This document shows, in pieces, positions 541 to 64,000 of a DNA stretch of 64,000 nt; position 1 is the stretch's first letter, and every line of letters starts with the position of its first letter. Below the pieces are notes generated by a model that did no database searches, was not told the DNA's origin, and saw only the letters and a list, made by a program, of their open reading frames with translations. The DNA is taken from NCBI GenBank assembly GCA_032622095.1, contig CP136061.1, positions 2,542,001-2,606,000 on the forward strand, written 5' to 3'. Origin of the DNA: Siphonodentalium dalli. Lineage: Eukaryota; Mollusca; Scaphopoda; Gadilida; Siphonodentaliidae. The position numbers were made by a program, and so were the translations under genes.

Positions 541-543
541 TGT

Positions 544-2725: not shown

Positions 2726-2810
2726 ATATATATACAGACAGACGCCCCCAAAAATTATATATGTATATTCGAAGATGATACAGCAGACAACCAGACAAAC
2801 AGACAGACAT
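2722..2810. repeat. CAGACAGA/AT-rich simple sequence
   Basis: ACAGACAGACG occurs near 2735, and a degenerate CAGACAA/CAGACAGA tract covers about 2780-2810, separated by an ATATATGTATAT stretch. The run directly follows the GGTCA block and may be its tail. Confidence 0.6.
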
Positions 2811-3199: not shown

Positions 3200-5600
3200 C
3201 TGTAGTGTGTCTTATAGGTATGGGTTATCAATATCCACCGGCCTTAAGTGTGTCTTATAGGTATGGATTATCAAAGTCAACTGGCCTCATGTGTGTCTTA
3301 TAGGTATTGATTATCAATATCCACCGGCCTCATGTGTGTCTTATAGGTATGGATTATCAATATCCACTGGCCTCATGTGTGTCTTATAGGTATGGATTAT
3401 CAATATCCACCGGCCTCATGTGTGTCTTATAGGTATGGATTGTCAATATCCACCGGCCTTATGTGTGTCTTATAGGTATGGATTATCAATATCCACCGGC
3501 CTCATGTGTGTCTTATAGGTATGGATTGTCAATATCCACCGGCCTTATGTGTGTCTTATAGGTATGGATTATCAATATACACAGGCCTTATGTGTGTCTT
3601 ATAGGTATGGATTATCAATATCCACCGGCCTTATATGTGTCTTATAGGTATGGATTATCAATATCCAACGGCCTTATATGTGTCTTATAGGTATGGATTA
3701 TCAATATCCACCGGCCTGTAGTGTGTCTTATAGGTATGGATTATCAATATCCACAGGCCTTATGTGTGTCTTATAGGTATGGATAATCAATATCCAACGG
3801 CCTTATGTGTGTCTTATAGGTATGGATTATCAATATCCACCGGCCTTATGTGTGTCTTATAGGTATGGATTATCAATATCCACCGGCGTTATGTGTGTCT
3901 TATAGGTATGGATTATCAATATCCAACGGCGTTATGTGTGTCTTATAGGTATGGATTATCAATATCCACCGGCCTTATGTGTGTCTTATAGGTATGGATT
4001 ATCAATATCCAACGGCCTTATGTGTGTCTTATAGGTATGGATTATCAATATCCACCGGCCTCATGTGTGTCTTATATGTATGGATTATCGATATCCACCG
4101 GCCTTATGTGTGTCTTATAGGTATGGATTATCAATATCCAACGGCCTGTAGTGTGTCTTATAGGTATGGATTATCAATATCCACCGGCGTTATGTGTGTC
4201 TTATAGGTATGGATTACCAATATCCACCGGCCTTATGTGTGTCTTATAGGTATGGATTATCAATATCCACCGGCCTTAAGTGTGTCTTATAGGTATGGAT
4301 TATCAATATCCACCGGCCTTATGTGTGTCTTATAGGTATGGATTATCAATATGCCACCGGCCTTATGTGTGTCTTATAGGTAACGATTATTAATATCCAC
4401 CGGCCTTATGTGTGTCTTATAGGTATGGATGATCAATATCCACCGGCCTTATGTGTGTCTTATAGGTAACGATTATTAATATCCACCGGCCTTATGTGTG
4501 TCTTATAGGTATGGATTATCAATATGCCACCGGCCTTATGTGTGTCTTATAGGTATGGATTATCAATATCCACCGGCCTTATGTGTGTCTTATAGGTATG
4601 GATTATCAATATCCACCGGCCTTATGTGTGTCTTATAGGTATGGATTATCAATATGCCACCTTCCTTATGTGTGTCTTATAGGTATGGATTATCAATATC
4701 CACCGGCCTTATGTGTGTCTTATAGGTATGGATTATCAATATCCACCGGCCTGTAGTGTGTCTTATAGGTATGGATTATCAATATCCACCGGCCTTAAGT
4801 GTGTCTTATAGGTATGGATTATCAATATCCACCGGCCTTATGTGTGTCTTATATGTATGGATTATCAATATCCACCGGCCTTATGTGTGTCTTATAGGTA
4901 TGGATTATCAATATCCATCGGCCTTATGTGGGTCTTATAGGTATGGATTATCAATATCCACCGGCCTTATGTATGTCTTATAGGTATGGATTATCAATAT
5001 CCACAGGCCTTATGTGTGGCTTATAGGTATGGATTATCAATATACACCGGCATTATGTGTGTCTTATAGGTATGGATTATCAATATCCACTGGCCTTATG
5101 TGTGTCTTATAGGTATGGATTATCAATATCCACAGGCCTTATGTGTGGCTTATAGGTATGGATTATCAATATACACCGGCATTATGTGTGTCTTATAGAT
5201 ATGGATTATCAATATCCATCGGCCTTATGTGGGTCTTATAGGTATGGATTATCAATATCCACTGGCCTTATGTGTGTCTTATAGGTATGGATTATCAATA
5301 TCCACAGGCCTTAAGTGTGGCTTATAGGTATGTATTATCAATATCAACCGGCATCATGTGTGTCTTATAGGTGTGGATTATCAATATCCACCGGCCTCAT
5401 GTGTGTCTTATATGTATGGATTATCAATATCCACCGGCCTTATGTGGGTCTTATAGGTATGGATTATCAATATCCACCGGCCTTATGTGTGTCTTATAGG
5501 TATGGATTATCAATATCCACCGGCCTGTAGTGTGTCTTATATGTATGGATTATCAATATCCACCGGCCTCATGTGTGTCTTATAGGTATGGATTATCAAT
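3200..5600 (+). repeat. Outer 43-bp subfamily (TATGGATTATC / CCACCGGCC)
   Basis: Units in this zone are mostly exactly 43 bp, with GGATT after TAT and CCACCGGCC or close variants (CCAACGGCC, CCACAGGCC). A few 44-bp units with an extra base (ATGCCACC) appear near 4351, 4524 and 4653. Small higher-order duplications are visible: the odd variant GGTAACGATTATTAATATCC occurs twice, 86 bp apart (4381 and 4467), and CCACAGGCC units recur at 5003, 5132 and 5304 (3 and 4 units apart). Units here are the least like those of the 7505-64000 array, as expected at an array edge. Confidence 0.85.
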
Positions 5601-7404
5601 ATGCCACCTTCCTTATGTGTGTCTTATAGGTATGTATTATCAATATGCCACCTTCCTTATGTGTGTCTTATAGGTATGTATTATCAATATACACCGGCCT
5701 GATGTATGTCTTATATGTATGGATTATCAATATGCCACCTTCCTTATGTGTGTCTTATAGGTATGGATTATCAATATGCCACCTTCCTTATGTGTGTCGT
5801 ATAGGTATGTATTATCAATATGCCACCTTACTTATGTGTGTCTTATAGGTATGGATTATCAATATGCCACCTTCCTTATGTGTGTCTTATAGGTATGTAT
5901 TATCAATATGCCACCTTCCTTATGTGTGTCTTATAGGTATGTATTATCAATATGCCACCTTCCTTATGTGAGTCTTATAGGTATGTATTATCAATATACA
6001 CCGGCCTTATGTGTGTCTTATAGGTATGTATTATCAATATGCCACCTTCCTCATGTGTGTCTTATAGGTATGTATTATCAATATACACCGGCCTTATGTG
6101 TGTCTTATAGGTATGTATTATCAATATGCCACCTTCCTTATGTGTGTCTTATAGGTATGTATTATCAATATCCACCGGCCTTATGTGTGTCTTATAGGTA
6201 TGCATTATCAATATACACCGGCCTTATGTGTGTCTTATAGGTATGTATTATCAATATACACCGGCCTTATGTGTGTCTTATAGGTATGTATTATCAATAT
6301 CCACCGGCCTCATGTGTGTCTTATAGGTATGTATTATCAATATACACCGGCCTTATGTGTGTCTTATAGGTATGTATTATCAATATCCACCGGCCTCATG
6401 TGTGTCTTATAGGTATGCATTATCAATATACACCGGCCTTATGTGTGTCTTATAGGTATGTATTATCAATATACACCGGCCTTATGTGTGTCTTATAGGT
6501 ATGTATTATCAATATCCACCGGCCTTATGTGTGTCTTATAGGTATGTATTATCAATATACACCGGCCTTATGTGTGTCTTATAGGTATGCTCAATATACA
6601 CCGGCCTTATGTGTGTCTTATAGGTATGTATTATCAATATACACCGGCCTTATGTGTGTCTTATAGGTATGTATTATCAATATACACCGGCCTTATGTGT
6701 GCTCTTATAGGTATGTATTATCAATATCCACCGGCCTTATGTGAGTCTTATATGTATACATTATCAATATGCCACCCTTCCTTATGTGAGTCTTATAGGT
6801 ATGTATTATCAATATGCCACCTTCCTTATGTGAGTCTTATAGGTATGTATTATCAATATGCCACCTTCCTTATGTGAGTCTTATAGGTATGTATTATCAA
6901 TATCCACCTTCCTTATGTGAGTCTTATAGGTAAGTATTATCAATATACACCGGCCTTATGTGTGTCTTATAGGTATGCATTATCAATATACACCGGCCTT
7001 ATGTGTGTCTTATAGGTATGTATTATCAATATACACCGGCCTTATGTGTGTCTTATAGGTATGTATTATCAATATACACCGGCCTTATGTGTGTCTTATA
7101 GGTATGTATTATCAATATCCACCGGCCTTATGTGAGTCTTATAGGTATACATTATCAATATGCCACCTTCCTTATGTGAGTCTTATAGGTATGTATTATC
7201 AATATGCCACCTTCCTTATGTGAGTCTTATAGGTATGTATTATCAATATGCCACCTTCCTTATGTGAGTCTTATATGTATGTATTATCAATATCCACCTT
7301 CCTTATGTGAGTCTTATAGGTATGTATTATCAATATACACCGGCCTTATGTGTGTCTTATAGGTATGTATTATCAATATCCACCTTCCTTATGTGAGTCT
7401 TATA
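5601..7404 (+). repeat. Inner mixed 43/44-bp subfamily (TATGTATTATC / GCCACCTTCC)
   Basis: From about 5600, GGATT gives way to GTATT, and GCCACCTTCC (44-bp class) or ACACCGGCC (43-bp class) replaces CCACCGGCC. GTGAGTC becomes common from about 6730 in place of GTGTGTC. These are the states seen, reverse-complemented, in the array after the gap, so this zone is intermediate between the outer edge and the main array. Alternation of 43- and 44-bp units (87 bp = 29 codons) explains the long open frame at 5908-6240. Confidence 0.85.
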
Positions 7405-7504
7405 NNNNNNNNNNNNNNNNNNNNNNNNNNNNNNNNNNNNNNNNNNNNNNNNNNNNNNNNNNNNNNNNNNNNNNNNNNNNNNNNNNNNNNNNNNNNNNNN
7501 NNNN
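7405..7504. other. Assembly gap of exactly 100 N
   Basis: One hundred N lie inside the satellite, interrupting a unit on both sides. Exactly 100 N is a common placeholder for a gap of unknown length. The repeat is in opposite orientations on the two sides, so the true length and the relative orientation of the flanks cannot be trusted. Confidence 0.99.
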
Positions 7505-7607
7505 ACATACCTATAAGACACACATAAGGACGGTGGCATATTGATAATACATACCTATAAGACTGACATAAGGAAGGTGACATATTGATAATACATACCT
7601 ATAAGAC

Positions 7608-8018
7608 TCACATAAGGACGGTGTATATTGATAATACATACCTATAAGACTGACATAAGGACGGTGGATATTGATAATACATACCTATAAGACTCACATA
7701 AGGACGGTGACATATTGATAATACATACCTATAAGACTGACATAAGGACGGTGGATATTGATAATACATACCTATAAGACTGACATAAGGACGGTGGCAT
7801 ATTGATAATACATACCTATAAGACTCACATAAGGACGGTGGATATTGATAATACATACCTATAAGACTCACATAAGGACGGTGACATATTGATAATACAT
7901 ACCTATAAGACTCACATAAGGACGGTGGATATTGATAATACATACCTATAAGACTCACATAAGGACGGTGGCATATTGATAATACATACCTATAAGACAC
8001 ACATAAGGACGGTGGCAT
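7608..8018 (-). repeat. 87-bp dimer tract
   Basis: Units of 43 bp (GTGGATA or GTGTATA) alternate with units of 44 bp (GTGACATA or GTGGCATA). The 87-bp pair is 29 codons, so one minus-strand phase stays open for 136 residues with a 29-residue period. The pattern is a length-class alternation, not evidence of coding. Confidence 0.8.
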
Positions 8019-11000
8019 ATTGATAATACATACCTATAAGACTGACATAAGGACGGTGGCATATTGATAATACATACCTATAAGACACACATAAGGACGG
8101 TGACATATTGATAATACATACCTATAAGACTGACATAAGGACGGTGGCATATTGATAATACATACCTATAAGACACACATAAGGGACGGTGACATATTGA
8201 TAATACATACCTATAAGACTCACATAAGGACGGTGACATATTGATAATACATACCTATAAGACTGACATAAGGACGGTGGCATATTGATAATACATACCT
8301 ATAAGACACACATAAGGACGGTGACATATTGATAATACATACCTATAAGACTCACATAAGGACGGTGACATATTGATAATACATACCTATAAGACTGACA
8401 TAAGGACGGTGGCATATTGATAATACATACCTATAAGACACACATAAGGACGGTGACATATTGATAATACATACCTATAAGACTCACATAAGGACGGTGA
8501 CATATTGATAATACATACCTATAAGACTGACATAAGGACGGTGGCATATTGATAATACATACCTATAAGACACACATAAGGACGGTGACATATTGATAAT
8601 ACATACCTATAAGACTGACATAAGGACGGTGACATATTGATAATACATACCTATAAGACTGACATAAGGAAGGTGACATATTGATAATACATACCTATAA
8701 GACTGACATAAGGACGGTGACATATTGATAATACATACCTATAAGACACACATAAGGACGGTGACATATTGATAATACATACCTATAAGACACACATAAG
8801 GACGGTGGATATTGATAATACATACCTATAAGACTGACATAAGGACGGTGACATATTGATAATACATACCTATAAGACTCACATAAGGAAGGTGACATAT
8901 TGATAATGTATACCTATAAGACTGACATAAGGACGGTGACATATTGATAATACATACCTATAAGACTCACATAAGGACGGGACATATTGATAATACATAC
9001 CTATAAGACTCACATAAGGACGGTGACATATTGATAATACATACCTATAAGACTCACATAAGGACGGTGGCATATTGATAATACATACCTATAAGACTGA
9101 CATAAGGACGGTGGCATATTGATAATACATACCTATAAGACTCACATAAGGACGGTGACATATTGATAATGCATACCTATAAGACTCACATAAGGACGGT
9201 GGATATTGATAATACATACCTATAAGACTGACATAAGGACGGTGACATATTGATAATACATACCTATAAGACTCACATAAGGACGGTGGCATATTGATAA
9301 TACATACCTATAAGACTGACATAAGGACGGTGACATATTGATAATACATACCTATAAGACTCACATAAGGACGGTGACATATTGATAATGCATACCTATA
9401 AGACTCACATAAGGACGGTGGATATTGATAATACATACCTATAAGACTGACATAAGGACGGTGGATATTGATAATACATACCTATAAGAATGACATAAGG
9501 ACGGTGACATATTGATAATACATACCTATAAGACTCACATAAGGACGGTGACATATTGATAATACATACCTATAAGACTCACATAAGGACGGTGTATATT
9601 GATAATACATACCTATAAGACTCACATAAGGACGGTGGCATATTGATAATACATACCTATAAGACACACATGCGGCCGGTGGCATATTGATAATACATAC
9701 CTATAAGACTCACATAAGGACGGTGGCATATTGATAATACATACCTATAAGACTGACATAAGGACGGTGTATATTGATAATACATACCTATAAGACACAC
9801 ATGCGGCCGGTGACATATTGATAATACATACCTATAAGACTCACATAAGGACGGTGACATATTGATAATACATACCTATAAGACTGACATAAGGACGGTG
9901 ACATATTGATAATACATACCTATAAGACTCACATAAGGACGGTGACATATTGATAATGCATACCTATAAGACTGACATAAGGACGGTGGATATTGATAAT
10001 ACATACCTATAAGACACACATAAGGACGGTGACATATTGATAATACATACCTATAAGACACACATAAGGACGGTGACATATTGATAATACATACCTATAA
10101 GACTGACATAAGGACGGTGGATATTGATAATACATACCTATAAGACACACATAAGGAAGGTGACATATTGATAATACATACCTATAAGACTGACATAAGG
10201 ACGGTGACATATTGATAATACATACCTATAAGACTGACATAAGGACGGTGACATATTGATAATGCATACCTATAAGACTGACATAAGGACGGTGACATAT
10301 TGATAATACATACCTATAAGACTGACATAAGGACGGTGACATATTGATAATACATACCTATAAGACTGACATAAGGACGGTGACATATTGATAATACATA
10401 CCTATAAGTCTCACATAAGGACGGTGACATATTGATAATACATACCTATAAGACTGACATAAGGACGGTGACATATTGATAATACATACCTATAAGTCTC
10501 ACATAAGGACGGTGACATATTGATAATACATACCTATAAGACTGACATAAGGACGGTGACATATTGATAATACATACCTATAAGTCTCACATAAGGACGG
10601 TGGCATATTGATAATACATACCTATAAGACTCACATAAGGACGGTGACATATTGATAATACATACCTATAAGACTCACATAAGGACGGTGACATATTGAT
10701 AATACATACCTATAAGACTGACATAAGGACGGTGGCATATTGATAATACATACCTATAAGACTCACATAAGGACGGTGGCATATTGATAATACATACCTA
10801 TAAGTCTCACATAAGGACGGTGACATATTGATAATACATACCTATAAGTCTCACATAAGGACGGTGACATATTGATAATGCATACCTATAAGACTCACAT
10901 AAGGACGGTGACATATTGATAATACATACCTATAAGACTGACATAAGGACGGTGACATATTGATAATACATACCTATAATACTGACATAAGGACGGTGGC

Positions 11001-13743
11001 ATATTGATAATACATACCTATAAGACTGACATAAGGACGGTGGCATATTGATAATACATACCTATAAGACTCACATAAGGACGGTGACATATTGATAATA
11101 CATACCTATAAGACTCACATAAGGACGGTGGCATATTGATAATACATACCTATAAGACTGACATAAGGACGGTGGCATATTGATAATACATACCTATAAG
11201 ACTCACATAAGGACGGTGACATATTGATAATACATACCTATAAGACTCACATAAGGACGGTGACATATTGATAATACATACCTATAAGACACACATAAGG
11301 ACGGTGACATATTGATAATACATACCTATAAGACTGACCTAAGGACGGTGACATATTGATAATACATACCTATAAGACTCACATAAGGACGGTGACATAT
11401 TGATAATACATACCTATAAGACTCACATAAGGACGGTGACATATTGATAATACATACCTATAAGACTGACATAAGGACGGTGGCATATTGATAATACATA
11501 CCTATAAGACTGACATAAGGACGGTGACATATTGATAATACATACCTATAAGACACACATAAGGACGGTGACATATTGATAATACATACCTATAAGACAC
11601 ACATAAGGACGGTGGATATTGATAATACATACCTATAAGACTCACATAAGGACGGTGACATATTGATAATACATACCTATAAGACACACATAAGGACGGT
11701 GACATATTGATAATACATACCTATAAGACTGACATAAGGACGGTGACATATTGATAATACATACCTATAAGACACACATAAGGACGGTGACATATTGATA
11801 ATACATACATATAAGACTGACATAAGGACGGTGACATATTGATAATACATACCTATAAGACTCACATAAGGACGGTGACATATTGATAATACATACCTAT
11901 AAGACTCACATAAGGACGGTGACATATTGATAATACATACCTATAAGACTCACATAAGGACGGTGGCATATTGATAATACATACCTATAAGACTGACATA
12001 AGGACGGTGACATATTGATAATACATACCTATAAGACACACATAAGGACGGTGACATATTGATAATACATACCTATAAGACTGACATAAGGACGGTGACA
12101 TATTGATAATACATACCTATAAGACTGACATAAGGACGGTGACATATTGATAATACATACCTATAAGACTCACATAAGGACGGTGACATATTGATAATAC
12201 ATACCTATAAGACTCACATAAGGACGGTGACATATTGATAATACATACCTATACGACTGACATAAGGACGGTGACATATTGATAATACATACCTATACGA
12301 CTGACATAAGGACGGTGACATATTGATAATACATACCTATAAGACTGACATAAGGACGGTGACATATTGATAATACATACCTATAAGACTCACATAAGGA
12401 CGGTGACATATTGATAATACATACCTATAAGACTGACATAAGGACGGTGACATATTGATAATACATACCTATAAGACTGACATAAGGACGGTGACATATT
12501 GATAATACATACCTATAAGACTCACATAAGGACGGTGACATATTGATAATACATACCTATAAGACTCACATAAGGACGGTGACATATTGATAATACATAC
12601 CTATAAGACTCACATAAGGACGGTGGCATATTGATAATGCATACCTATAAGACACACATAAGGACGGTGACATATTGATAATACATACCTATAAGACTCA
12701 CATAAGGACGGTGGATATTGATAATACATACCTATAAGACTCACATAAGGACGGTGACATATTGATAATACATACCTATAAGACTCACATAAGGACGGTG
12801 ACATATTGATAATACATACCTATAAGACTGACATAAGGACGGTGACATATTGATAATGCATACCTATAAGACACACATAAGGACGGTGACATATTGATAA
12901 TACATACCTATAAGACTCACATAAGGACGGTGGATATTGATAATACATACCTATAAGACTCACATAAGGACGGTGACATATTGATAATACATACCTATAA
13001 GACTCACATAAGGACGGTGGCATATTGATAATACATACCTATAAGACTCACATAAGGAAGGTGGCATATTGATAATACATACCTATAAGACTCACATAAG
13101 GACGGTGACATATTGATAATACATACCTATAAGACTGACATAAGGACGGTGGCATATTGATAATACATACCTATAAGACTCACATAAGGACGGTGGCATA
13201 TTGATAATGCATACCTATAAGACACACATAAGGACGGTGACATATTGATAATACATACCTATAAGACTCACATAAGGACGGTGACATATTGATAATGCAT
13301 ACCTATAAGACACACATAAGGACGGTGACATATTGATAATACATACCTATAAGACTCACATCAGGAAGGTGACATATTGATAATACATACCTATAAGACT
13401 GACATAAGGACGGTGGCATATTGATAATACATACCTATAAGACTGACATAAGGACGGTGACATATTGATAATACATACCTATAAGACTGACATAAGGGAC
13501 GGTGACATATTGATAATACATACCTATAAGACACACATAAGGACGGTGACATATTGATAATACATACCTATAAGACTGACATAAGGACGGTGGCATATTG
13601 ATAATACATACCTATAAGACTGACATAAGGACGGTGGCATATTGATAATACATACCTATAAGACTCACATAAGGACGGTGACATATTGATAATACATACC
13701 TATAAGACTCACATAAGGAAGGTGGCATATTGATAATACATAC

Positions 13744-14090
13744 CTATAAGACTGACATAAGGACGGTGTATATTGATAATACATACCTATAAGACTCACA
13801 TAAGGACGGTGTATATTGATAATACATACCTATAAGACTGACATAAGGACGGTGACATATTGATAATACATACCTATAAGACTGACATAAGGACGGTGTA
13901 TATTGATAATACATACCTATAAGACTCACATAAGGACGGTGTATATTGATAATACATACCTATAAGACTGACATAAGGAAGGTGACATATTGATAATACA
14001 TACCTATAAGACTCACATAAGGACGGTGTATATTGATAATACATACCTATAAGACTCACATAAGGACGGTGTATATTGATAATACATACC
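13744..14090 (-). repeat. 130-bp trimer tract (43+43+44)
   Basis: Successive units follow a GTGTATA, GTGTATA, GTGACATA pattern. The second trimer repeats the first at 130 bp with few differences: compare 13744-13870 with 13874-14000. This is a small local higher-order repeat. Confidence 0.7.
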
Positions 14091-16204
14091 TATAAGACTC
14101 ACATAAGGAAGGTGACATATTGATAATACATACCTATAAGACACACATGAGGACGGTGACATATTGATAATACATACCTATAAGACTCACATAAGGACGG
14201 TGGCATATTGATAATACATACCTATAAGACACACATAAGGACGGTGGCATATTGATAATACATACCTATAAGACTGACATAAGGACGGTGGCATATTGAT
14301 AATACATACCTATAAGACTGACATAAGGACGGTGACATATTGATAATACATACCTATAAGACACACATAAGGACGGTGACATATTGATAATACATACCTA
14401 TAAGACTCACATAAGGACGGTGACATATTGATAATACATACCTATAAGACTCACATAAGGACGGTGCATATTGATAATACATACCTATAAGACTCACATA
14501 AGGACGGTGACATATTGATAATACATACCTATAAGACTCACATAAGGACGGTGCATATTGATAATACATACCTATAAGACTGACATAAGGAAGGTGACAT
14601 ATTGATAATACATACCTATAAGACTCACATAAGGAAGGTGACATATTGATAATACATACCTATAAGACTGACATAAGGACGGTGACATATTGATAATACA
14701 TACCTATAAGACTCACATAAGGACGGTGACATATTGATAATACATACCTATAAGACTCACATAAGGAAGGTGACATATTGATAATACATACCTATAAGAC
14801 TCACATAAGGACGGTGACATATTGATAATACATACCTATAAGACTCACATAAGGACGGTGACATATTGATAATACATACCTATAAGACTCACATAAGGAC
14901 GGTGCATATTGATAATACATACCTATAAGACTGACATAAGGAAGGTGACATATTGATAATACATACCTATAAGACTCACATAAGGAAGGTGACATATTGA
15001 TAATACATACCTATAAGACTGACATAAGGACGGTGACATATTGATAATACATACCTATAAGACTCACATAAGGACGGTGACATATTGATAATACATACCT
15101 ATAAGACACACATAAGGACGGTGGCATATTGATAATACATACCTATAAGACTGACATAAGGACGGTGGCATATTGATAATACATACCTATAAGACTGACA
15201 TAAGGACGGTGGATATTGATAATACATACCTATAAGACTGACATAAGGACGGTGACATATAGATAATACATACCTATAAGACTCACATAAGGACGGTGAC
15301 ATATTGATAATACATACCTATAAGACACACATAAGGACGGTGGCATATTGATAATACATACCTATAAGACTGACATAAGGACGGTGGCATATTGATAATA
15401 CATACCTATAAGACACACATAAGGACGGTGACATATTGATAATACATACCTATAAGACTGACATAAGGACGGTGACATATTGATAATACATACCTATAAG
15501 ACTCACATAAGGACGGTGACATATTGATAATACATACCTATAAGACACACATAAGGACGGTGGCATATTGATAATACATACCTATAAGACTCACATAAGG
15601 AAGGTGACATATTGATAATACATACCTATAAGACTCACATAAGGAAGGTGACATATTGATAATACATACCTATAAGACTCACATAAGGACGGTGGATATT
15701 GATAATACATACCTATAAGACTCACATAAGGAAGGTGACATATTGATAATACATACCTATAAGACACACATAAGGACGGTGACATATTGATAATACATAC
15801 CTATAAGACTGACATAAGGACGGTGGATATTGATAATACATACCTATAAGACTCACATAAGGAAGGTGACATATTGATAATACATACCTACAAGACTCAC
15901 ATAAGGAAGGTGACATATTGATAATACATACCTATAAGACTGACATAAGGACGGTGACATATTGATAATACATACCTATAAGACTCACATAAGGCCGGTG
16001 ACATATTGATAATACATACCTATAAGACTCACATAAGGACGGTGGCATATTGATAATACATACCTATAAGACTGACATAAGGACGGTGACATATTGATAA
16101 TACATACCTATAAGACTCACATAAGGACGGTGGCATATTGATAATACATACCTATAAGACTCACATAAGGACGGTGGCATATTGATAATACATACCTATA
16201 AGAC

Positions 16205-16335
16205 TCACATAAGGTCGGTGGATATTGATAATACATACCTATAAGACTCACATAAGGTCGGTGGATATTGATAATACATACCTATAAGACTCACATAAGG
16301 TCGGTGGATATTGATAATACATACCTATAAGACTC
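16205..16335 (-). repeat. Three identical AAGGTCGG 43-bp units
   Basis: Three consecutive units carry the rare AAGGTCGGTGGATATTG combination with starts spaced exactly 43 bp (about 16212, 16255, 16298). This indicates a very recent tandem triplication of one unit. Confidence 0.75.
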
Positions 16336-29630: not shown

Positions 29631-29785
29631 TTGATAATACATACCTATAAGACTCACATAAGGACGGTGGCATATTGATAATACATACCTATAAGACACA
29701 CATAAGGACGGTGGCATATTGATAATACATACCTATAAGACTCACATAAGGAAGGTGACATATTGATAATACATACCTATAAGAC

Positions 29786-48600: not shown

Positions 48601-49575
48601 AATGACGGTGACATATTGATAATACATACCTATAAGACTCACATAATGACGGTGACATATTGATAATACATACCTATAAGACTCACATAAGGACGGTGGC
48701 ATATTGATAATACATACCTATAAGACTCACATAAGGACGGTGACATATTGATAATACATACCTATAAGACACACATAAGGCCGGTGACATATTGATAATA
48801 CATACCTATAAGACTCACATAAGGAAGGTGACATATTGATAATACATACCTATAAGACTCACATAAGGACGGTGACATATTGATAATACATACCTATAAG
48901 ACTCACATAAGGAAGGTGACATATTGATAATACATACCTATAAGACTCACATAAGGACGGTGGCATATTGATAATACATACCTATAAGACTCACATAAGG
49001 AAGGTGACATATTGATAATACATACCTATAAGACTCACAAAAGGACGGTGGCATATTGATAATGCATACCTATAATACTCACATAAGGAAGGTGACATAT
49101 TGATAATACATACCTATAAGACTCACATAAGGACGGTGACATATTGATAATGCATACCTATAAGACACACATAAGGAAGGTGACATATTGATAATACATA
49201 CCTATAAGACTCACATAAGGACGGTGGCATATTGATAATGCATACCTATAAGACTCACATAAGGAAGGTGACATATTGATAATACATACCTATAAGACTC
49301 ACATAAGGACGGTGACATGTTGATAATGCATACCTATAAGACTCACATAAGGACGGTGACATATTGATAATACATACCTATAAGACTCACATAAGGACGG
49401 TGACATATTGATAATACATACCTATAAGACACACATAAGGACGGTGACATATTGATAATACATACCTATAAGACTCACATAAGGAAGGTGACATATTGAT
49501 AATACATACCTATAAGACACACATAAGGACGGTGACATATTGATAATACATACCTATAAGACTCACATAAGGAAG
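45600..49575 (-). repeat. ~1.25-kb block duplicated at 2,725 bp
   Basis: About 45600-46850 matches about 48326-49575 at an offset of 2,725 bp (62 units). Rare markers agree: CATAATGAC at 45873 and 48598, CACAAAAGG at 46311 and 49036, and CATGTTGATAATG at 46591 and 49316. The match starts after the last TTGCCATG unit near 45590 and ends near 46853, where GTGGCATA faces GTGACATA. One base near 45607 differs close to the left edge. Confidence 0.85.
47441..49024 (-). repeat. Tandem pair of 18-mers (792 bp each)
   Basis: CCTACAAGACACAC marks the start at 47441 and again at 48233, exactly 792 bp (18 x 44) apart. The doubled CATAATGAC units at 47806 and 48598 keep the same offset. The order of unit types agrees with only isolated substitutions (for example GACTGACA against GACTCACA near 47714 and 48506). 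The second copy overlaps the 2,725-bp duplicate, so at least two rounds of amplification are layered here. Confidence 0.85.
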
Positions 49576-49974
49576 GTGACATATTGATAATACATACCTA
49601 TAAGACTCACATAAGGACGGTGACATATTGATAATACATACCTATAAGACACACATAAGGACGGTGACATATTGATAATACATACCTATAAGACTCACAT
49701 AAGGAAGGTGACATATTTATAATACATACCTATAAGACACACATAAGGACGGTGACATATTGATAATACATACCTATAAGACTCACATAAGGAAGGTGAC
49801 ATATTGATAATACATACCTATAAGACTCACATAAGGACGGTGACATATTGATAATACATACCTATAAGACACACATAAGGACGGTGACATATTGATAATA
49901 CATACCTATAAGACTCACATAAGGAAGGTGACATATTGATAATACATACCTATAAGACTCACATAAGGACGGTG

Positions 49975-52900
49975 GATATTGCCATGTATACCTATAAGAC
50001 ACACATAAGGACGGTGGATATTGCCATGTATACCTATAAGACACACATAAGGACGGTGACATATTGATAATACATACCTATAAGACTCACATAAGGACGG
50101 TGACATATTGATAATACATACCTATAAGACTCACATAAGGAAGGTGACATATTGATAATACATACCTATAAGACTCACATAAGGACGGTGGATATTGCCA
50201 TGTATACCTATAAGACACACATAAGGACGGTGACATATTGATAATACATACCTATAAGACTCACATAAGGAAGGTGGCATATTGATAATGCATACCTATA
50301 ATACACACATAAGGACGGTGGCATATTGATAATGCATACCTATAAGACTCACATAAGGACGGTGACATATTGATAATACTTACCTATAAGACTCACATAA
50401 GGACGGTGGATCTTGCCATGTATACCTATAAGACTCACATAAGGAAGGTGACATATTGATAATACATACCTATAAGACTCACATAAGGACGGTGGCATAT
50501 TGATAATGCATACCTATAAGACTCACATAAGGAAGGTGACATATTGATAATACATACCTATAAGACTCACATAAGGACGGTGGCATATTGATAATGCATA
50601 CCTATAAGACTCACATAAGGAAGGTGACATATTGATAATACATACCTATAAGACTCACATAAGGACGGTGGCATATTGATAATGCATACCTATAAGACTC
50701 ACATAAGGACGGTGACATATTGATAATACATACCTATAAGACTCACATAAGGACGGTGGCATATTGATAATGCATACCTATAAGACTCACATAAGGACGG
50801 TGACATATTGATAATACATACCTATAAGACTCACATAAGGAAGGTGACATATTGATAATACATACCTATAAGACTCACATAAGGACGGTGACATATTGAT
50901 AATGTATACCTATAAGACTCACATAAGGACGGTGGCATATTGATAATGCATACCTATAAGACTCACATAAGGACGGTGACATATTGATAATACATACCTA
51001 TAAGACTCACATAAGGACGGTGGCATATTGATAATGCATACCTATAAGACTCACATAAGGACGGTGACATATTGATAATACATACCTATAAGACTCACAT
51101 AAGGACGGTGACATATTGATAATACATACCTATAAGACTCACATAAGGACGGTGACATATTGATAATACATACCTATAAGACACACATAAGGAAGTTGTC
51201 ATATTGATAATACATACCTATAAGACTCACATAAGGAAGGTGACATATTGATAATACATACCTATAAGACTCACATAAGGACGGTGGCATATTGATAATA
51301 CATACCTATAAGACTCACATAAGGACGGTGGCATATTGATAATGCATACCTATAAGACTCACATAAGGACGGTGACATATTGATAATACATACCTATAAG
51401 ACTCACATAAGGACGGTGGCATATTGATAATGCATACCTATAAGACTCCCATAAGGAAGGTGACATATTGATAATACATACCTATAAGACTCACATAAGG
51501 AAGGTGACATATTGATAATACATACCTATAAGACTCACATAAGGACGGTGGCATATTGATAATACATACCTATAAGACTCACATAAGGAAGGTGACATAT
51601 TGATAATACATACCTATAAGACTCACATAAGGAAGGTGACATATTGATAATACATACCTATAAGACTCACATAAGGAAGGTGACATATTGATAATACATA
51701 CCTATAAGACACACATAAGGACGGTGGCATATTGATAATACATACCTATAAGACTCACATAAGGAAGGTGGCATATTGATAATACATACCTATAAGACTC
51801 ACATAAGGAAGGTGACATATTGATAATGCATACCTATAAGACTCACATAAGGACGGTGGCATATTGATAATACATACCTATAAGACTCACATAAGGACGG
51901 TGGCATATTGATAATGCATACCTATAAGACTCACATAAGGACGGTGACATATTGATAATACATACCTATAAGACTCACATAAGGACGGTGACATATTGAT
52001 AATACATACCTATAAGACACACATAAGGACGGTGACATATTGATAATACATACCTATAAGACTCACATAAGGACGGTGACATATTGATAATACATACCTA
52101 TAAGACTCACATAAGGACGGTGACATATTGATAATACATACCTATAAGACACACATAAGGAAGGTGACATATTGATAATGCATACCTATAAGACTCACAT
52201 AAGGAAGGTGACATATTGATAATACATACCTATAAGACTCACATAAGGAAGGTGGCATATTGATAATACATACCTATAAGACTCACATAAGGAAGGTGAC
52301 ATATTGATAATACATACCTATAAGACACACATAAGGACGGTGGCATATTGATAATACATACCTATAAGACTCACATAAGGAAGGTGACATATTGATAATA
52401 CATACCTATAAGACTCACATAAGGAAGGTGTATATTGATAATACATACCTATAAGACTCACATAAGGACGGTGGATATTGATAATACATACCTATAAGAC
52501 TCACATAAGGAAGGTGGCATATTGATAATACATACCTATAAGACTCACATAAGGACGGTGGATATTGATAATACATACCTATAAGACTCACATAAGGACG
52601 GTGACATATTGATAATACATACCTATAAGACTCACATAAGGAAGGTGACATATTGATAATACATACCTATAAGACTCACATGAGGAAGGTGACATATTGA
52701 TAATGCATACCTATAAGACTCACATAAGGAAGGTGGCATATTGATAATGCATACCTATAAGACTCACATAAGGAAGGTGACATATTGATAATGCATACCT
52801 ATAAGACTCACATAAGGAGGTGACATATTGATAATACATACCTATAAGACTCACATAAGGACGGTGGCATATTGATAATGTATACCTATAAGACACACAT

Positions 52901-53640
52901 AAGGACGGTGACATATTGATAATGCATACCTATAAGACTCACATAAGGAAGGTGGCATATTGATAATGCATACCTATAAGACACACATAAGGACGGTGGC
53001 ATATTGATAATACATACCTATAAGACTCACATAAGGACGGTGACATATTGATAATACATACCTATAAGACTCACATAAGGACGGTGGATATTGCCATGTA
53101 TACCTATAAGACACACATAAGGACGGTGACATATTGATAATACATACCTATAAGACTCACATAAGGACGGTGACATATTGATAATACATACCTATAAGAC
53201 TCACATAAGGACGGTGACATATTGATAATACATACCTATAAGACACCCATAAGGACGGTGTATATTGATAATACATACCTATAAGACACACATAAGGAAG
53301 GTGGCATATTGATAATACATACCTATAAGACACACATAAGGAAGGTGGCATATTGATAATACATACCTATAAGACACACATAAGGAAGGTGGCATATTGA
53401 TAATACATACCTATAATACACACATAAGGACGGTGGATATTGATAATACATACCTATAAGACTCACATAAGGACGGTGACATATTGATAATACATACCTA
53501 TAAGACTCACATAAGGACGGTGGATATTGCCATGTATACCTATAAGACTCACATAAGGACGGTGACATATTGATAATACATACCTATAAGACTCACATAA
53601 GGACGGTGGATATTGCCATGTATACCTATAAGACACACAT
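49975..53640 (-). repeat. Scattered TTGCCATG units, second cluster
   Basis: CCATG occurs at 49982, 50024, 50198, 50416, 53094, 53530 and 53616. Here it is usually joined to GTGGATA, giving 42-bp units, whereas the 43.7-45.6 kb cluster mostly has GTGACATA. The two clusters are therefore related but distinct haplotypes of the variant. Confidence 0.75.
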
Positions 53641-53879
53641 AAGGAAGGTGGCATATTGATAATACATACCTATAAGACACACATAAGGAAGGTGGCATAT
53701 TGATAATACATACCTATAAGACTCACATAAGGAAGGTGACATATTGATAATACATACCTATAAGACACACATAAGGAAGGTGGCATATTGATAATACATA
53801 CCTATAAGACACACATAAGGACGGTGGATATTGATAATACATACCTATAAGACTCACATAAGGACGGTGGCATATTGAT

Positions 53880-56800
53880 AATACATACCTATAAGACTCA
53901 CATAAGGACGGTGGCATATTGATAATGCATACCTATAAGACTCACATAAGGACGGTGGCATATTGATAATGCATACCTATAAGACTCACATAAGGACGGT
54001 GGCATATTGATAATACATACCTATAAGACTCACATAAGGACGGTGGCATATTGATAATACATACCTATAAGACTCACATAAGGACGGTGGCATATTGATA
54101 ATACATACCTATAAGACTCACATAAGGACGGTGGCATATTGATAATGCATACCTATAAGACTCACATAAGGACGGTGACATATTGATAATGCATACCTAT
54201 AAGACTCACATAAGGACGGTGGCATATTGATAATACATACCTATAAGACTCACATAAGGACGGTGTATATTGATAATGCATACCTATAAGACTCACATAA
54301 GGACGGTGACATATTGATAATGTATACCTATAAGACTCACATAAGGAAGGTGACATATTGATAATACATACCTATAAGACTCACATAAGGAAGGTGACAT
54401 ATTGATAATACATACCTATAAGACACACATAAGGACGGTGGCATATTGATAATACATACCTATAAGACTCACATAAGGACGGTGGCATATTGATAATACA
54501 TACCTATAAGACTCACATAAGGAAGGTGACATATTGATAATACATACCTATAAGACTCACATAAGGACGGTGGCATATTGATAATGCATACCTATAAGAC
54601 TCACATAAGGACGGTGGCATATTGATAATACATACCTATAAGACTCACATAAGGAAGGTGACATATTGATAATACATACCTATAAGACTCACATAAGGAC
54701 GGTGGCATATTGATAATACATACCTATAAGACTCACATAAGGACGGTGGCATATTGATAATACATACCTATAAGACTCACATAAGGAAGGTGGCATATTG
54801 ATAATGCATACCTATAAGACTCACATAAGGAAGGTGGCATATTGATAATGCATACCTATAAGACTCACATAAGGAAGGTGGCATATTGATAATGCATACC
54901 TATAAGACTCACATAAGGACGGTGGCATATTGATAATACATACCTATAAGACTCACATAAGGACGGTGCATATTGATAATCCATACCTATAAGACTCACA
55001 TAAGGAAGGTGGCATATTGATAATGCATACCTATAAGACTCACATAAGGACGGTGCATATTGATAATCCATACCTATAAGACTCACATAAGGAAGGTGGC
55101 ATATTGATAATGCATACCTATAAGACTCACATAAGGACGATGGCATAATGATAATGCATACCTATAAGACTCACATAAGGACGGTGGCATATTGATAATA
55201 CATACCTATAAGACTCACATAAGGACGGTGGCATATTGATAATACATACCTATAAGACTCACATAAGGACGGTGGCATATTGATAATACATACCTATAAG
55301 ACTCACATAAGGACGGTGGCATATTGATAATGCATACCTATAAGACTCACATAAGGACGGTGGCATATTGATAATACATACCTATAAGACACACATAAGG
55401 ACGGTGGCATATTGATAATGCATACCTATAAGACTCACATAAGGACGGTGGCATATTGATAATACATACCTATAAGACACACATAAGGACGGTGGCATAT
55501 TGATAATACATACCTATAAGACTCACATAAGGACGGTGACATATTGATAATACATACCTATAAGACTCACATAAGGACGGTGGCATATTGATAATACATA
55601 CCTATAAGACACACATAAGGACGGTGACATATTGATAATACATACCTATAAGACACATATAAGGCCGGTGGCATATTGATAATGCATACCTATAAGACAC
55701 ACATAAGGACGGTGGCATATTGATAATACATACCTATAAGACACACATAAGGACGGTGACATATTGATAATACATACCTATAAGACACATATAAGGCCGG
55801 TGGCATATTGATAATGCATACCTATAAGACACACATAAGGACGGTGGCATATTGATAATACATACCTATAAGACTCACATAAGGACGGTGGCATATTGAT
55901 AATGCATACCTATAAGACTCACATAAGGACGGTGACATATTGATAATGCATACCTATAAGACTCACATAAGGAAGGTGGAATATTGATAATCCATACCTA
56001 TAAGACTCACATAAGGACGGTGGCATATTGATAATACATACCTATAAGACACACATAAGGACGGTGACATATTGATAATACATACCTATAAGACACATAT
56101 AAGGCCGGTGGCATATTGATAATGCATACCTATAAGACACACATAAGGACGGTGGCATATTGATAATACATACCTATAAGACTCACATAAGGACGGTGGC
56201 ATATTGATAATACATACCTATAAGACTCACATAAGGACGGTGGCATATTGATAATGCATACCTATAAGACACACATAAGGACGGTGACATATTGATAATA
56301 CATACCTATAAGACACATATAAGGCCGGTGGCATATTGATAATGCATACCTATAAGACACACATAAGGACGGTGGCATATTGATAATACATACCTATAAG
56401 ACTCACATAAGGACGGTGGCATATTGATAATGCATACCTATAAGACACATATAAGGACGGTGGCATATTGATAATACATACCTATAAGACTCACATAAGG
56501 ACGGTGGCATATTGATAATGCATACCTATAAGACACACATAAGGACGGTGGCATATTGATAATACATACCTATAAGACTCACATAAGGACGGTGGCATAT
56601 TGATAATGCATACCTATAAGACACACATAAGGACGGTGACATATTGATAATACATACCTATAAGACACATATAAGGCCGGTGGCATATTGATAATGCATA
56701 CCTATAAGACACACATAAGGACGGTGGCATATTGATAATGCATACCTATAAGACTCACATAAGGACGGTGGCATATTGATAATGCATACCTATAAGACAC

Positions 56801-59800
56801 ACATAAGGAAGGTGGCATATTGATAATACATACCTATAAGACTCACATAAGGACGGTGGCATATTGATAATACATACCTATAAGACTCACATAAGGACGG
56901 TGGCATATTGATAATACATACCTATAAGACACACATAAGGACGGTGGCATATTGATAATACATACCTATAAGACTCACATAAGGACGGTGGCATATTGAT
57001 AATGCATACCTATAAGACACACATAAGGAAGGTGGCATATTGATAATACATACCTATAAGACACACATAAGGACGGTGGCATATTGATAATGCATACCTA
57101 TAAGACACACATAAGGAAGGTGGCATATTGATAATACATACCTATAAGACTCACATAAGGACGGTGGCATATTGATAATACATACCTATAAGACTCACAT
57201 AAGGACGGTGGCATATTGATAATACATACCTATAAGACTCACATAAGGACGGTGGCATATTGATAATACATACCTATAAGACTCACATAAGGACGGTGAC
57301 ATATTGATAATACATACCTATAAGACACATATAAGGCCGGTGGCATATTGATAATGCATACCTATAAGACACACATAAGGAAGGTGGCATATTGATAATA
57401 CATACCTATAAGACACACATAAGGACGGTGTATATTGATAATACATACCTATAAGACACACATAAGGAAGGTGGCATATTGATAATACATACCTATAAGA
57501 CTCACATAAGGACGGTGACATATTGATAATGCATACCTATAAGACTCACATACGACCGGTGGCATATTGATAATGCATACCTATAAGACTCACATAAGGA
57601 CGGTGGCATATTGATAATGCATACCTATAAGACACACATAAGGAAGGTGGCATATTGATAATACATACCTATAAGACTCACATAAGGACGGTGGCATATT
57701 GATAATGCATACCTATAAGACTCACATAAGGACGGTGGCATATTGATAATACATACCTATAAGACTCACATAAGGAAGGTGACATATTGATAATGCATAC
57801 CTATAAGACTCACATAAGGACGGTGACATATTGATAATACATACCTATAAGACTCACATAAGGACGGTGGATATTGATAATACATACCTATAAGACTCAC
57901 ATAAGGACGGTGACATATTGATAATACATACCTATAAGACTCACATAAGGACGGTGACATATTGATAATACATACCTATAAGACTCACATAAGGACGGTG
58001 GCATATTGATAATACATACCTATAAGACTCACATAAGGAAGGTGACATATTGATAATACATACCTATAAGACTCACATAAGGACGGTGGCATATTGATAA
58101 TACATACCTATAAGACTCACATAAGGACGGTGGCATATTGATAATGCATACCTATAAGACTCACATAAGGACGGTGGCATATTGATAATACATACCTATA
58201 AGACTCACATAAGGAAGGTGGCATATTGATAATGCATACCTATAAGACACACATAAGGACGGTGGCATATTGATAATGCATACCTATAAGACTCACATAA
58301 GGACGGTGGCATATTGATAATACATACCTATAAGACTCACATAAGGACGGTGGCATATTGATAATACATACCTATAAGACTCACATAAGGACGGTGACAT
58401 ATTGATAATACATACCTATAAGACTCACATAAGGACGGTGACATATTGATAATACATACCTATAAGACTCACATAAGGACGGTGACATATTGATAATACA
58501 TACCTATAAGACTCACATAAGGACGGTGACATATTGATAATACATACCTATAAGACTCACATAAGGACGGTGACATATTGATAATACATACCTATAAGAC
58601 TCACATAAGGAAGGTGACATATTGATAATACATACCTATAAGACTCACATAAGGACGGTGGCATATTGATAATACATACCTATAAGACTCACATAAGGAC
58701 GGTGACATATTGATAATACATACCTATAAGACTCACATAAGGAAGGTGGCATATTGATAATACATACCTATAAGACACACATAAGGAAGGTGACATATTG
58801 ATAATACATACCTATAAGACACACATAAGGAAGGTGGCATATTGATAATACATACCTATAAGACACACATAAGGAAGGTGGCATATTGATAATACATACC
58901 TATAAGACTCACATAAGGACGGTGACATATTGATAATACATAACTATAAGACACACATAAGGCCGGTGGCATATTGATAATGCATACCTATAAGACTCAC
59001 ATAAGGAAGGTGACATATTGATAATACATACCTATAAGACAGACATAAGGACGGTGACATATTGATAATACATACCTATAAGACTCACATAAGGACGGTG
59101 GCATATTGATAATACATACCTATAAGACAGACATAAGGACGGTGACATATTGATAATGCATACCTATAAGACACACATAAGGACGGTGACATATTGATAA
59201 TACATACCTATAAGACTCACATAAGGACGGTGGCATATTGATAATGCATACCTATAAGACTCACATAAGGAAGGTGACATATTGATAATACATACCTATA
59301 AGACACACATAAGGAAGGTGACATATTGATAATACATACCTATAAGACACACATAAGGAAGGTGGCATATTGATAATACATACCTATAAGACTCACATAA
59401 GGACGGTGACATATTGATAATACATACCTATAAGACACACATAAGGAAGGTGACATATTGATAATACATACCTATAAGACTCACATAAGGAAGGTGGCAT
59501 ATTGATAATGCATACCTATAAGACTCACATAAGGACGGTGGCATATTGATAATCCATACCTATAAGACTCACATAAGGAAGGTGGCATATTGATAATGCA
59601 TACCTATAAGACTCACATAAGGACGGTGGCATATTGAAAATGCATACCTATAAGACTCACATAAGGACGGTGGCATATTGATAATGCATACCTATAAGAC
59701 TCACATAAGGACGGTGGCATATTGATAATGCATACCTATAAGACTCACATAAGGACGGTGGCATATTGATAATGCATACCTATAAGACTCACATAAGGAA

Positions 59801-60500
59801 GGTGGCATATTGATAATACATACCTATAAGACTCACATAAGGACGGTGGCATATTGATAATGCATACCTATAAGACTCACATAAGGACGGTGGCATATTG
59901 ATAATACATACCTATAAGACTCACATAAGGACGGTGGCATATTGATAATGCATACCTATAAGACTCACATAAGGAAGGTGGCATATTGATAATGCATACC
60001 TATAAGACTCACATAAGGACGGTGGCATATTGATAATGCATACCTATAAGACTCACATAAGGACGGTGGCATATTGATAATGCATACCTATAAGACTCAC
60101 ATAAGGAAGGTGGCATATTGATAATGCATACCTATAAGACACACATAAGGACGGTGGCATATTGATAATGCATACCTATAAGACTCACATAAGGACGGTG
60201 GCATATTGATAATGCATACCTATAAGACTCACATAAGGACGGTGCATATTGATAATACATACCTATAAGACTCACATAAGGAAGGTGGCATATTGATAAT
60301 ACATACCTATTAGACAGACATAAGGACGGTGGCATATTGATAATACATACCTATAAGACAGACATAAGGACGGTGGCATATTGATAATACATACCTATAA
60401 GACTCACATAAGGCCGGTGGCATATTGATAATACATACCTATAAGACACACATAAGGAAGGTGGCATATTGATAATACATACCTATAAGACAGACATAAG
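53880..60500 (-). repeat. GTGGCATA / AATGCATA-rich subarray
   Basis: In this interval GTGGCATA and AATGCATA are far more frequent than elsewhere, GACTGACA is nearly absent, and most units are 44 bp. The marker ACACATATAAGGCCGG recurs at about 55651, 55783, 56091, 56311, 56663 and 57323 with offsets of 132, 308, 220, 352 and 660 bp, all multiples of 44. A dimer with GTGCATA and AATCCATA is duplicated at 87 bp (about 54981 and 55068). The zone looks like a separately homogenised subfamily. Confidence 0.7.
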
Positions 60501-61079
60501 GACGGTGGCATATTGATAATACATACCTATAAGACACACATAAGGACGGTGGCATATTGATAATACATACCTATAAGACTCACATAAGGACGGTGACATA
60601 TTGATAATACATACCTATAAGACACACATAAGGAAGGTGACATATTGATAATGCATACCTATAAGACACACATAAGGACGGTGACATATTGATAATCCAT
60701 ACCTATAAGACTGACATAAGGACGGTGACATATTGATAATGCATACCTATAAGACTCACATAAGGACGGTGACATATTGATAATGCATACCTATAAGACT
60801 CACATAAGGACGGTGACATATTGATAATGCATACCTATAAGACTCACATAAGGACGGTGACATATTGATAATACATACCTATAAGACACACATAAGGACG
60901 GTGACATATTGATAATACATACCTATAAGACACACATAAGGACGGTGACATATTGATAATACATACCTATAAGACTGACATAAGGACGGTGACATATTGA
61001 TAATACATACCTATAAGACTGACATAAGGACGGTGACATATTGATAATACATACCTATAAGACACACATAAGGACGGTG

Positions 61080-61800
61080 ACATATTGATAATACATACCT
61101 ATAAGACTGACATAAGGAAGGTGACATATTGATAATCCATACCTATAAGACTCACATAAGGACGGTGACATATTGATAATACATACCTATAAGACTCACA
61201 TAAGGACGGTGACATATTGATAATACATACCTATAAGACACACATAAGGACGGTGACATATTGATAATACATACCTATAAGACACACATAAGGACGGTGA
61301 CATATTGATAATACATACCTATAAGACTCACATAAGGTCGGTGGATATTGATAATACATACCTATAAGACTGACATAAGGACGGTGTATATTGATAATAC
61401 ATACCTATAAGACTCACATAAGGACGGTGACATATTGATAATACATACCTATAAGACACACATAAGGACGGTGACATATTGATAATACATACCTATAAGA
61501 CTGACATAAGGAAGGTGACATATTGATAATCCATACCTATAAGACTCACATAAGGACGGTGACATATTGATAATACATACCTATAAGACTCACATAAGGA
61601 CGGTGACATATTGATAATACATACCTATAAGACACACATAAGGACGGTGACATATTGATAATACATACCTATAAGACACACATAAGGACGGTGACATATT
61701 GATAATACATACCTATAAGACTCACATAAGGTCGGTGGATATTGATAATACATACCTATAAGACTGACATAAGGACGGTGTATATTGATAATACATACCT
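61080..61800 (-). repeat. 9-mer (394-bp) higher-order duplication
   Basis: AATCCATACC at 61137 and 61531 and AAGGTCGG at 61334 and 61728 are both offset 394 bp (nine units, two of 43 bp). The intervening order of unit types is the same. GACTGACA units, rare from 46 to 60 kb, are common again here. Confidence 0.8.
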
Positions 61801-63320
61801 ATAAGACTCACATAAGGAAGGTGACATATTGATAATACATACCTATAAGACTCACATAAGGACGGTGTATATTGATAATGTATACCTATAAGACTCACAT
61901 AAGGAAGGTGGCATATTGATAATACATACCTATAAGACTGACATAAGGACGGTGGCATATTGATAATACATACCTATAAGACTCACATAAGGACGGTGAC
62001 ATATTGATAATACATACCTATAGGACTCACATAAGGACGGTGACATATTGATAATACATACCTATAAGACTCACATAAGGACGGTGTATATTGATAATGT
62101 ATACCTATAAGACTCACATAAGGAAGGTGGCATATTGATAATACATACCTATAAGACTGACATAAGGACGGTGGCATATTGATAATACATACCTATAAGA
62201 CTCACATAAGGACGGTGACATATTGATAATACATACCTATAAGACTCACATAAGGACGGTGACATATTGATAATACATACCTATAAGACTCACATAAGGA
62301 CGGTGACATATTGATAATACATACCTATAAGACTCACATAAGGACGGTGTATATTGATAATGTATACCTATAAGACACACATAAGGAAGGTGGCATATTG
62401 ATAATACATACCTATAAGACTGACATAAGGACGGTGTATATTGATAATGCATACCTATAAGACTCACATAAGGACGGTGTATATTGATAATGTATACCTA
62501 TAAGACTCACATAAGGAAGGTGGCATATTGATAATACATACCTATAAGACTGACATAAGGACGGTGTATATTGATAATGCATACCTATAAGACTCACATA
62601 AGGACGGTGACATATTGATAATACATACCTATAAGACTCACATAAGGAAGGTGGCATATTGATAATACATACCTATAAGACTCACATAAGGAAGGTGGCA
62701 TATTGATAATGTATACCTATAAGACACACATAAGGAAGGTGGCATATTGATAATACATACATATAAGACTCACATAAGGACGGTGGCATATTGATAATAC
62801 ATACCTATAAGACTCACATAAGGACGGTGGCATATTGATAATACATACCTATAAGACTCACATAAGGACGGTGTATATTGATAATGTATACCTATAAGAC
62901 ACACATAAGGACGGTGTATATTGATAATGTATACCTATAAGACTCACATAAGGAAGGTGGCATATTGATAATACATACCTATAAGACTCACATAAGGAAG
63001 GTGGCATATTGATAATACATACCTATAAGACTCACATAAGGACGGTGACATATTGATAATACATACCTATAAGACTCACATAAGGACGGTGTATATTGAT
63101 AATGTATACCTATAAGACACACATAAGGACGGTGTATATTGATAATGTATACCTATAAGACTCACATAAGGAAGGTGGCATATTGATAATACATACCTAT
63201 AAGACTGACATAAGGACGGTGTATATTGATAATGCATACCTATAAGACTCACATAAGGACGGTGACATATTGATAATACATACCTATAAGACTCACATAA
63301 GGACGGTGACATATTGATAA
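61800..63320 (-). repeat. GTGTATA + AATGTATA subarray
   Basis: Repeated cassettes of GTGTATATTGATAATGTATA, then AAGGAAGG with GTGGCATA, then GACTGACATAAGG occur near 61867, 62083, 62346, 62468, 62871 and 63085. Local copies at 61860-61970 and 62080-62190 are nearly identical. The combination GTGTATA with AATGTATA is concentrated in this interval. Confidence 0.65.
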
Positions 63321-64000
63321 TACATACCTATAAGACTCACATAAGGACGGTGACATATTGATAATACATACCTATAAGACTGACATAAGGACGGTGTATA
63401 TTGATAATACATACCTATAAGACTCACATAAGGACGGTGACATATTGATAATACATACCTATAAGACTCACATAAGGACGGTGTATATTGATAATGTATA
63501 CCTATAAGACTCACATAAGGACGGTGGCATATTGATAATACATACCTATAAGACTGACATAAGGAAGGTGGCATATTGATAATACATACCTATAAGACTC
63601 ACATAAGGAAGGTGGCATATTGATAATGCATACCTATAAGACTGACATAAGGACGGTGGCATATTGATAATACATACCTATAATACTCACATAAGGAAGG
63701 TGGCATATTGATAATACATACCTATAAGACTCACATAAGGAAGGTGACATATTGATAATACATACCTATAAGACTCACACAAGGAAGGTGACATATTGAT
63801 AATACATACCTATAAGACTCACATAAGGACGGTGTATATTGATAATACATACCTATAAGACTCACATAAGGAAGGTGACATATTGATAATACATACCTAT
63901 AAGACTGACATAAGGACGGTGACATATTGATAATACATACCTATAAGACTCACATAAGGAAGGTGACATATTGATAATACATACCTATAAGACTCACATA

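What the first reader, a model, noticed from the sequence alone, without database searches (positions are those of the whole stretch)
3200..64000. Very large uninterrupted 43/44-bp satellite, no insertions seen
About 60.7 kb consists of one short repeat family, some 1,390 units, with an abrupt left edge at about 3200 and no right edge in the window. I saw no transposon or gene inserted. Arrays of this scale with short units are typical of centromeric, pericentromeric or heterochromatic satellites, but nothing here proves which. The unit resembles no family I recognise.
Basis: partly seen in the sequence, partly recalled or inferred. Interest (0 to 1): 0.7.

Follow-up and report, generated by a model that had tools for sequence, protein, structure and literature searches.

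The report
Ordinary 44-bp satellite, gapped and inverted
This stretch is a long run of one short repeated DNA word, most likely ordinary non-coding satellite DNA, but it is not one unbroken run: the assembly has a gap near its start and the repeats face the opposite way on the two sides of that gap.

Summary
The repeat is real: about 1,385 units of one 43/44-bp family fill about 3,201-64,000, with a sharp left edge, no right edge in the window and no inserted sequence. But the array is not uninterrupted. 100 N, a scaffold gap, lie at 7,405-7,504, and the unit runs forward before it (mostly 43 bp) and reversed after it (mostly 44 bp). These are two assembled pieces of unknown distance; the inversion may be real or a scaffolding error.

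The right-hand array is uniform except at four dinucleotide slots per unit. Slot alleles combine almost freely within the 44 bp, and marked lineages show exchange inside units. Ordinary satellite turnover (local unequal exchange or short conversion tracts) roughly explains this, though no simulated model matched every statistic. I found no strong higher-order repeat, CENP-B box, unusual folding or open frame in the unit, and no Rfam family in 1-12,000. No relative was found, but no eukaryotic genome collection was available, so species, location and novelty of the sequence are untested. Most likely a neutral heterochromatic satellite; a centromeric role is possible but unsupported. New member of a known kind; low interest.

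The parts
3201..7404 (+). Array 1: 96 core-to-core units, mostly 43 bp (75 of 96), bordered on the left by non-satellite sequence
   Evidence: left edge read at about 3,201, TRF starts at 3,205
7405..7504 (.). 100 N: scaffold gap of unknown true size; repeat orientation flips across it
7505..64000 (-). Array 2: 1,287 core-to-core units, mostly 44 bp (1,137 of 1,287), reversed relative to array 1; runs off the window
45608..46853 (-). Copy 1 of the longest exact repeat in array 2 (1,246 bp)
48333..49578 (-). Copy 2 of that repeat, 2,725 bp away (27 identical units at a lag of 62 units)

Best explanation
Two assembled pieces of one non-coding satellite family, placed side by side in a scaffold across a gap of unknown size. 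Units are copied and replaced within the array by local exchange (unequal exchange of small blocks, or gene conversion with tracts of about one unit), with breakpoints inside units, mostly over tens of units and occasionally further. This keeps 36 of 44 positions nearly identical in array 2 while alleles at four dinucleotide slots are shuffled among units. Array 1 borders non-satellite sequence and is more diverse, as expected of an array edge where homogenisation is weaker. The array probably lies in constitutive heterochromatin and has no sequence-specific role. Shown: the units, gap, orientation flip, slots, near-free combination of slots, exchange inside units, block duplication. Inferred: which exchange process dominates, the edge effect, the heterochromatic location, the absence of function.
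For: Arrays and units. Gap and flip. Slots: mean minor-allele frequency 17.6% in 8 slot columns against 0.38% in the other 36. Slot combinations are close to independent: normalised mutual information between different slots of a unit is at most 0.045, and the commonest combination is seen 260 times against 277 expected. Neighbouring units share slot alleles only a little more than random (F at lag 1 from 0.081 to 0.187), declining over tens of units, and rare variants are also clustered locally (18 lag-1 pairs against 1.15 expected). Of 5 units with the rare pair 5G+8T, one differs from the other four at three slots at once, and 17 units with a complex ATGGCA change carry either of two slot-2 alleles: exchange rather than point mutation. 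A 1,246-bp exact duplication; 35 runs of 5 or more identical units against 0-1 in five full shuffles and 1-12 in five block shuffles. Simulated local exchange gives similarly low neighbour similarity and low linkage. Edge: non-slot minor frequency 2.5% in array 1 against 0.38% in array 2.
Against: The eight most variable columns of array 2 fall into four adjacent pairs (P = 0.015 among random sets of 8, a test chosen after looking), and all five consensus differences between the arrays fall in the slots; neutral turnover does not specially predict this, so constraint on the other 36 columns is possible. No simulated model matched every statistic: conversion models lacked the excess at lag 2 and the 27-unit run, block models needed frequent mutation at the slots or left too much neighbour similarity. 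Several slot pairs are associated above all shuffles. Slot 2 keeps F of 0.105 at lag 50. Location was not tested.
Confidence: 0.75

Rival explanations
1. The flip at the gap is a true inverted junction inside one satellite block, not a misplaced contig.
For: Both sides are the same family, and inverted switches inside satellite blocks occur in other genomes (recalled).
Against: The flip coincides with the only N gap in the window, so no assembled sequence crosses from one orientation to the other.
Confidence: 0.35
2. The unit is the functional centromere repeat of its species: kinetochore chromatin sits on it and the conserved blocks bind a protein.
For: Large insertion-free array of one family; variation confined to four slots.
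Against: No CENP-B-box resemblance (9 of 17 mismatches in both consensuses), no dyad-like folding, no strong higher-order repeat, though none of these is required of a centromere repeat. Location unknown.
Confidence: 0.2
3. The slots are mutational hot spots, and repeated mutation rather than exchange accounts for the free combination of alleles.
For: Block-exchange simulations come near the data only with frequent slot mutation; every slot has several alleles.
Against: Marked lineages change several slots together or swap a complex allele.
Confidence: 0.15
4. The array is an assembly artefact (collapsed, expanded or chimeric).
For: Scaffold gap and flip; sequencing technology unknown.
Against: In array 2, 87% of positions start a unique 200-mer and all start a unique 1,500-mer, so accurate long reads could place it. 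This does not show that such reads were used.
Confidence: 0.1
5. The array is the internal tandem repeat of a mobile element such as a Helitron.
For: Such arrays are common in an oyster (PMC8268682, passages).
Against: More than a thousand units without element sequence in the arrays; mollusc origin itself is untested.
Confidence: 0.05

Closest known systems
Classical satellite DNA under concerted evolution (general class; review PMC5615363, passages seen)
   Same: Long head-to-tail non-coding array of high uniformity; that review names unequal crossing-over, gene conversion and reinsertion as the spreading mechanisms
   Different: Short unit; chromosomal location and genome-wide copy number unknown
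Satellites with conserved and variable segments: Meloidogyne satellites (PMC3694981, passages seen); Arabidopsis centromere repeats (Hall et al. 2003, seen only as a reference-list title there; not held)
   Same: Variation concentrated in parts of the unit; exchange in short segments
   Different: No CENP-B-box-like motif here, unit 44 bp, no higher-order repeat seen
Minisatellite variant repeats such as human MS32 (recalled, no call)
   Same: Short units with a few variable sites interspersed along the array
   Different: Array of tens of kilobases; no allele or pedigree data
Crassostrea gigas satellites, many Helitron-linked (PMC8268682, passages seen)
   Different: Those passages describe short scattered arrays, units of 21-3,287 bp with 160-180 bp commonest; the '44 bp' there is a Helitron end segment, not a unit

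Membership tests
Satellite DNA (general class) | Long tandem array of near-identical units | tested here: met
   mean pairwise identity 91.0% in array 1 and 94.5% in array 2
Satellite DNA (general class) | Non-coding | tested here: met
   Stops in all six frames of both tandem consensus units; 0 Rfam matches in 1-12,000, rest of window not scanned
Satellite DNA (general class) | High copy number genome-wide | not testable with these tools
   No whole genome held
Centromeric satellite | CENP-A occupancy or position at the primary constriction | not testable with these tools
   Needs ChIP or FISH
CENP-B-box satellites | 17-bp CENP-B box (motif recalled) | tested here: not met
   Best match has 9 of 17 mismatches in both consensuses, no better than shuffles; 4 of 9 core bases mismatched
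Higher-order-repeat satellites (alpha-satellite type) | Block of several units repeated with much higher similarity at that lag | tested here: not met
   Array 2, lags 1-60: highest mean identity 0.914 (lag 2) against 0.899 for random pairs (on MAFFT columns); a local 62-unit duplication exists
Helitron-internal satellite | Element ends flanking the array | not tested
   Only the left edge is visible; I did not search it for Helitron ends

The most novel reading that the evidence does not exclude
A satellite in which four dinucleotide slots per 44-bp unit are free to vary and recombine almost independently, while the blocks between them are held constant by a sequence-specific binding protein: in effect over a thousand spaced binding sites that also carry a readable record of exchange at sub-unit resolution.
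Probability: 0.1. Interest if true: 0.5.

Novelty: new member of a known kind. Interest (0 to 1): 0.2.

Why it matters
As an array it is ordinary. Its modest value is practical: the 100-N gap with opposite orientations marks a place where the scaffold should not be trusted, and the 56.5-kb gap-free stretch with four variable slots per unit is a convenient record for measuring exchange inside satellite units. If the conserved blocks proved to bind a protein, the unit would be a candidate centromere or heterochromatin element of its species.

Tried and rejected
Higher-order repeat: no strong period at lags 1-60; lag 2 slightly raised. RNA families: none in 1-12,000 (the rest was not scanned). 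CENP-B box, open frames, strand folding of a two-unit consensus: negative. Relatives: a 24-base pattern (one position free, otherwise exact) gave 0 matches in viral contigs and genome contigs; the flank 1-3,200 against phages and 401 bp of array against plasmids gave none. These are poor places to look for a eukaryotic satellite, so the misses say little. Papers, open-access text only, seven searches: 11-mers of the unit, 44-bp or 43-bp mollusc satellites, constraint, bivalve satellites, mosaic variants; none of the listings identified this unit. Of the papers listed I saw passages of three.

Does array 1 continue array 2 if array 2 is flipped? Comparing the gap end of array 1 (24 units) with 21 blocks of 30 units along array 2 gave no clear best end. 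Hypermutable slots as sole cause: weakened by marked lineages, not excluded. My first MAFFT alignment put the one-base gap of 43-bp units in a poor place, so site statistics from then on use a projection onto a 44-bp reference; the lag means come from the MAFFT columns. The projection splits the one ATGGCA change into several rare variant types, so 43 rare types is an overcount of events. A printed header says 200 shuffles; the script ran 100. Simulations are exploratory: one seed per setting, 18 settings (600 units) and 16 (1,000 units), three alleles per slot; one setting lost all variation and another nearly all of it.

Full report
What is there. From about 3,201 to the window's end the sequence is one family of 43/44-bp tandem units. 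TRF reports 3,205-7,404 (period 43, 97.3 copies, 93% matches) and 7,505-64,000 (period 44, 1,287.5 copies, 95% matches). Cutting at the conserved core gives 96 and 1,287 core-to-core units with 53 and 150 distinct sequences; 75 of 96 are 43 bp and 1,137 of 1,287 are 44 bp. A 25-mer of the unit is found 1,367 times with up to 3 mismatches, against a mean of 0.01 in 100 shuffles.

Positions 7,405-7,504 are 100 N. The 97 cores found on the + strand (up to one mismatch) lie at 3,210-7,355 and the 1,283 on the - strand at 7,508-63,982. The finding therefore joins two contigs. A run of exactly 100 N is a usual placeholder for a join of unknown length (recalled). Because the flip coincides with the gap, I think a misoriented contig somewhat more likely than a true inversion, but I could not decide: the gap end of array 1 is no nearer to one end of array 2 than to several other places in it (21 blocks compared).

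The two arrays. The consensuses differ at five positions (unit columns 14, 26, 27, 33, 43), all in the slots described below. Mean pairwise identity is 91.0% in array 1, 94.5% in array 2 and 87.6% between them. Outside the slots the mean minor-allele frequency is 2.5% in array 1 and 0.38% in array 2. Array 1 borders non-satellite sequence, so this fits weaker homogenisation at an array edge; since the arrays may not be neighbours, the comparison is only suggestive.

Slots. In array 2 the eight most variable columns are 13-14, 26-27, 32-33 and 42-43; mean minor frequency is 17.6% there and 0.38% in the other 36. That the eight hold four adjacent pairs has P = 0.015 among 200,000 random sets, a test chosen after seeing the data. 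Array 1's ten most variable columns include six slot columns and four others (8, 31, 37, 39), so the pattern is shared only in part. Forty-three rare variant types lie outside the slots, 25 of them in one or two units and the commonest in 18 of 1,287 units; some types are pieces of one complex change.

How units are exchanged. Slot alleles combine almost independently inside the 44 bp: normalised mutual information between different slots of a unit is at most 0.045, though several pairs exceed all 100 shuffles. Some combinations depart from independence, for example GC-GC-GT-GA 42 against 18.6 and GC-GC-GG-GT 9 against 0.2. Neighbours resemble each other weakly: F at lag 1 is 0.081 to 0.187, and at lag 50 it is -0.011 to 0.105, the highest in slot 2. 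Rare variants are also clustered locally: 18 lag-1 pairs against 1.15 expected, none at lag 50. Sharing between neighbours is coherent across slots to 0.37 of what whole-unit copying predicts. Marked lineages show exchange: 17 units carry a complex ATGGCA change, all with AC in slot 1, but 9 have GT and 8 the shorter C allele in slot 2; of 5 units with 5G+8T, one differs at slots 2, 3 and 4 together. Blocks are copied too: 27 identical units at a lag of 62, part of a 1,246-bp exact repeat.

Simulations. In exploratory models, conversion with tracts of mean 44 bp, mean distance 20 units and 3% long-range transfers came near the real diversity and neighbour similarity (F at lag 1 0.099 against 0.122; coherence 0.437 against 0.37). 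It gave too little linkage (mean 0.009 against 0.023) and, no long identical runs (5 against 27). Exchange of blocks of mean 3 or 10 units bracketed the data when slots mutated often; single-unit exchange left neighbours far too alike (F about 0.9). No setting matched every statistic. I conclude that ordinary satellite turnover is roughly sufficient and do not claim which process dominates.

Function. No CENP-B-box resemblance, no open frame in the unit, no folding beyond shuffles, no Rfam match in 1-12,000, no strong higher-order repeat. These negatives do not exclude a centromeric role. Location, copy number and species could not be tested, since no genome is held.

Novelty. Exact-pattern scans of viral and prokaryote collections, and blastn of the flank on phages and of 401 bp of array on plasmids, found nothing; seven paper searches did not identify the unit. 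None of these is a eukaryotic repeat library, so 'new family' is untested. As a kind it is a classical satellite.

Noticed in passing
window 551-2169: Inverted arms at 551-591 and 2,129-2,169 (41 nt, 76% complementary, outer ends G/C runs), with GTTGACG as a direct repeat a few bases outside both arms (read): a possible 1.6-kb DNA transposon or its remnant.
   Followed up: partly
window 983-1354: 123-codon open stretch inside that possible element with a cysteine/histidine pattern; only a sub-threshold Pfam match (Sina_ZnF, E 0.045, 14.6 bits against a cut-off of 32, 4 open stretches scanned).
   Followed up: partly
window 2383-2543: Two 31-nt stretches 130 bp apart, 71% alike, in a region with AAGGTCA-like words; possibly a degenerate longer repeat.
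   Followed up: no
window 20-103: Two 32-nt direct repeats 52 bp apart, 94% identical.
   Followed up: no
window 7505-64000: Neighbour similarity is higher at lag 2 than at lag 1 in all four slots, a faint two-unit rhythm that the conversion simulations did not reproduce.
   Followed up: partly
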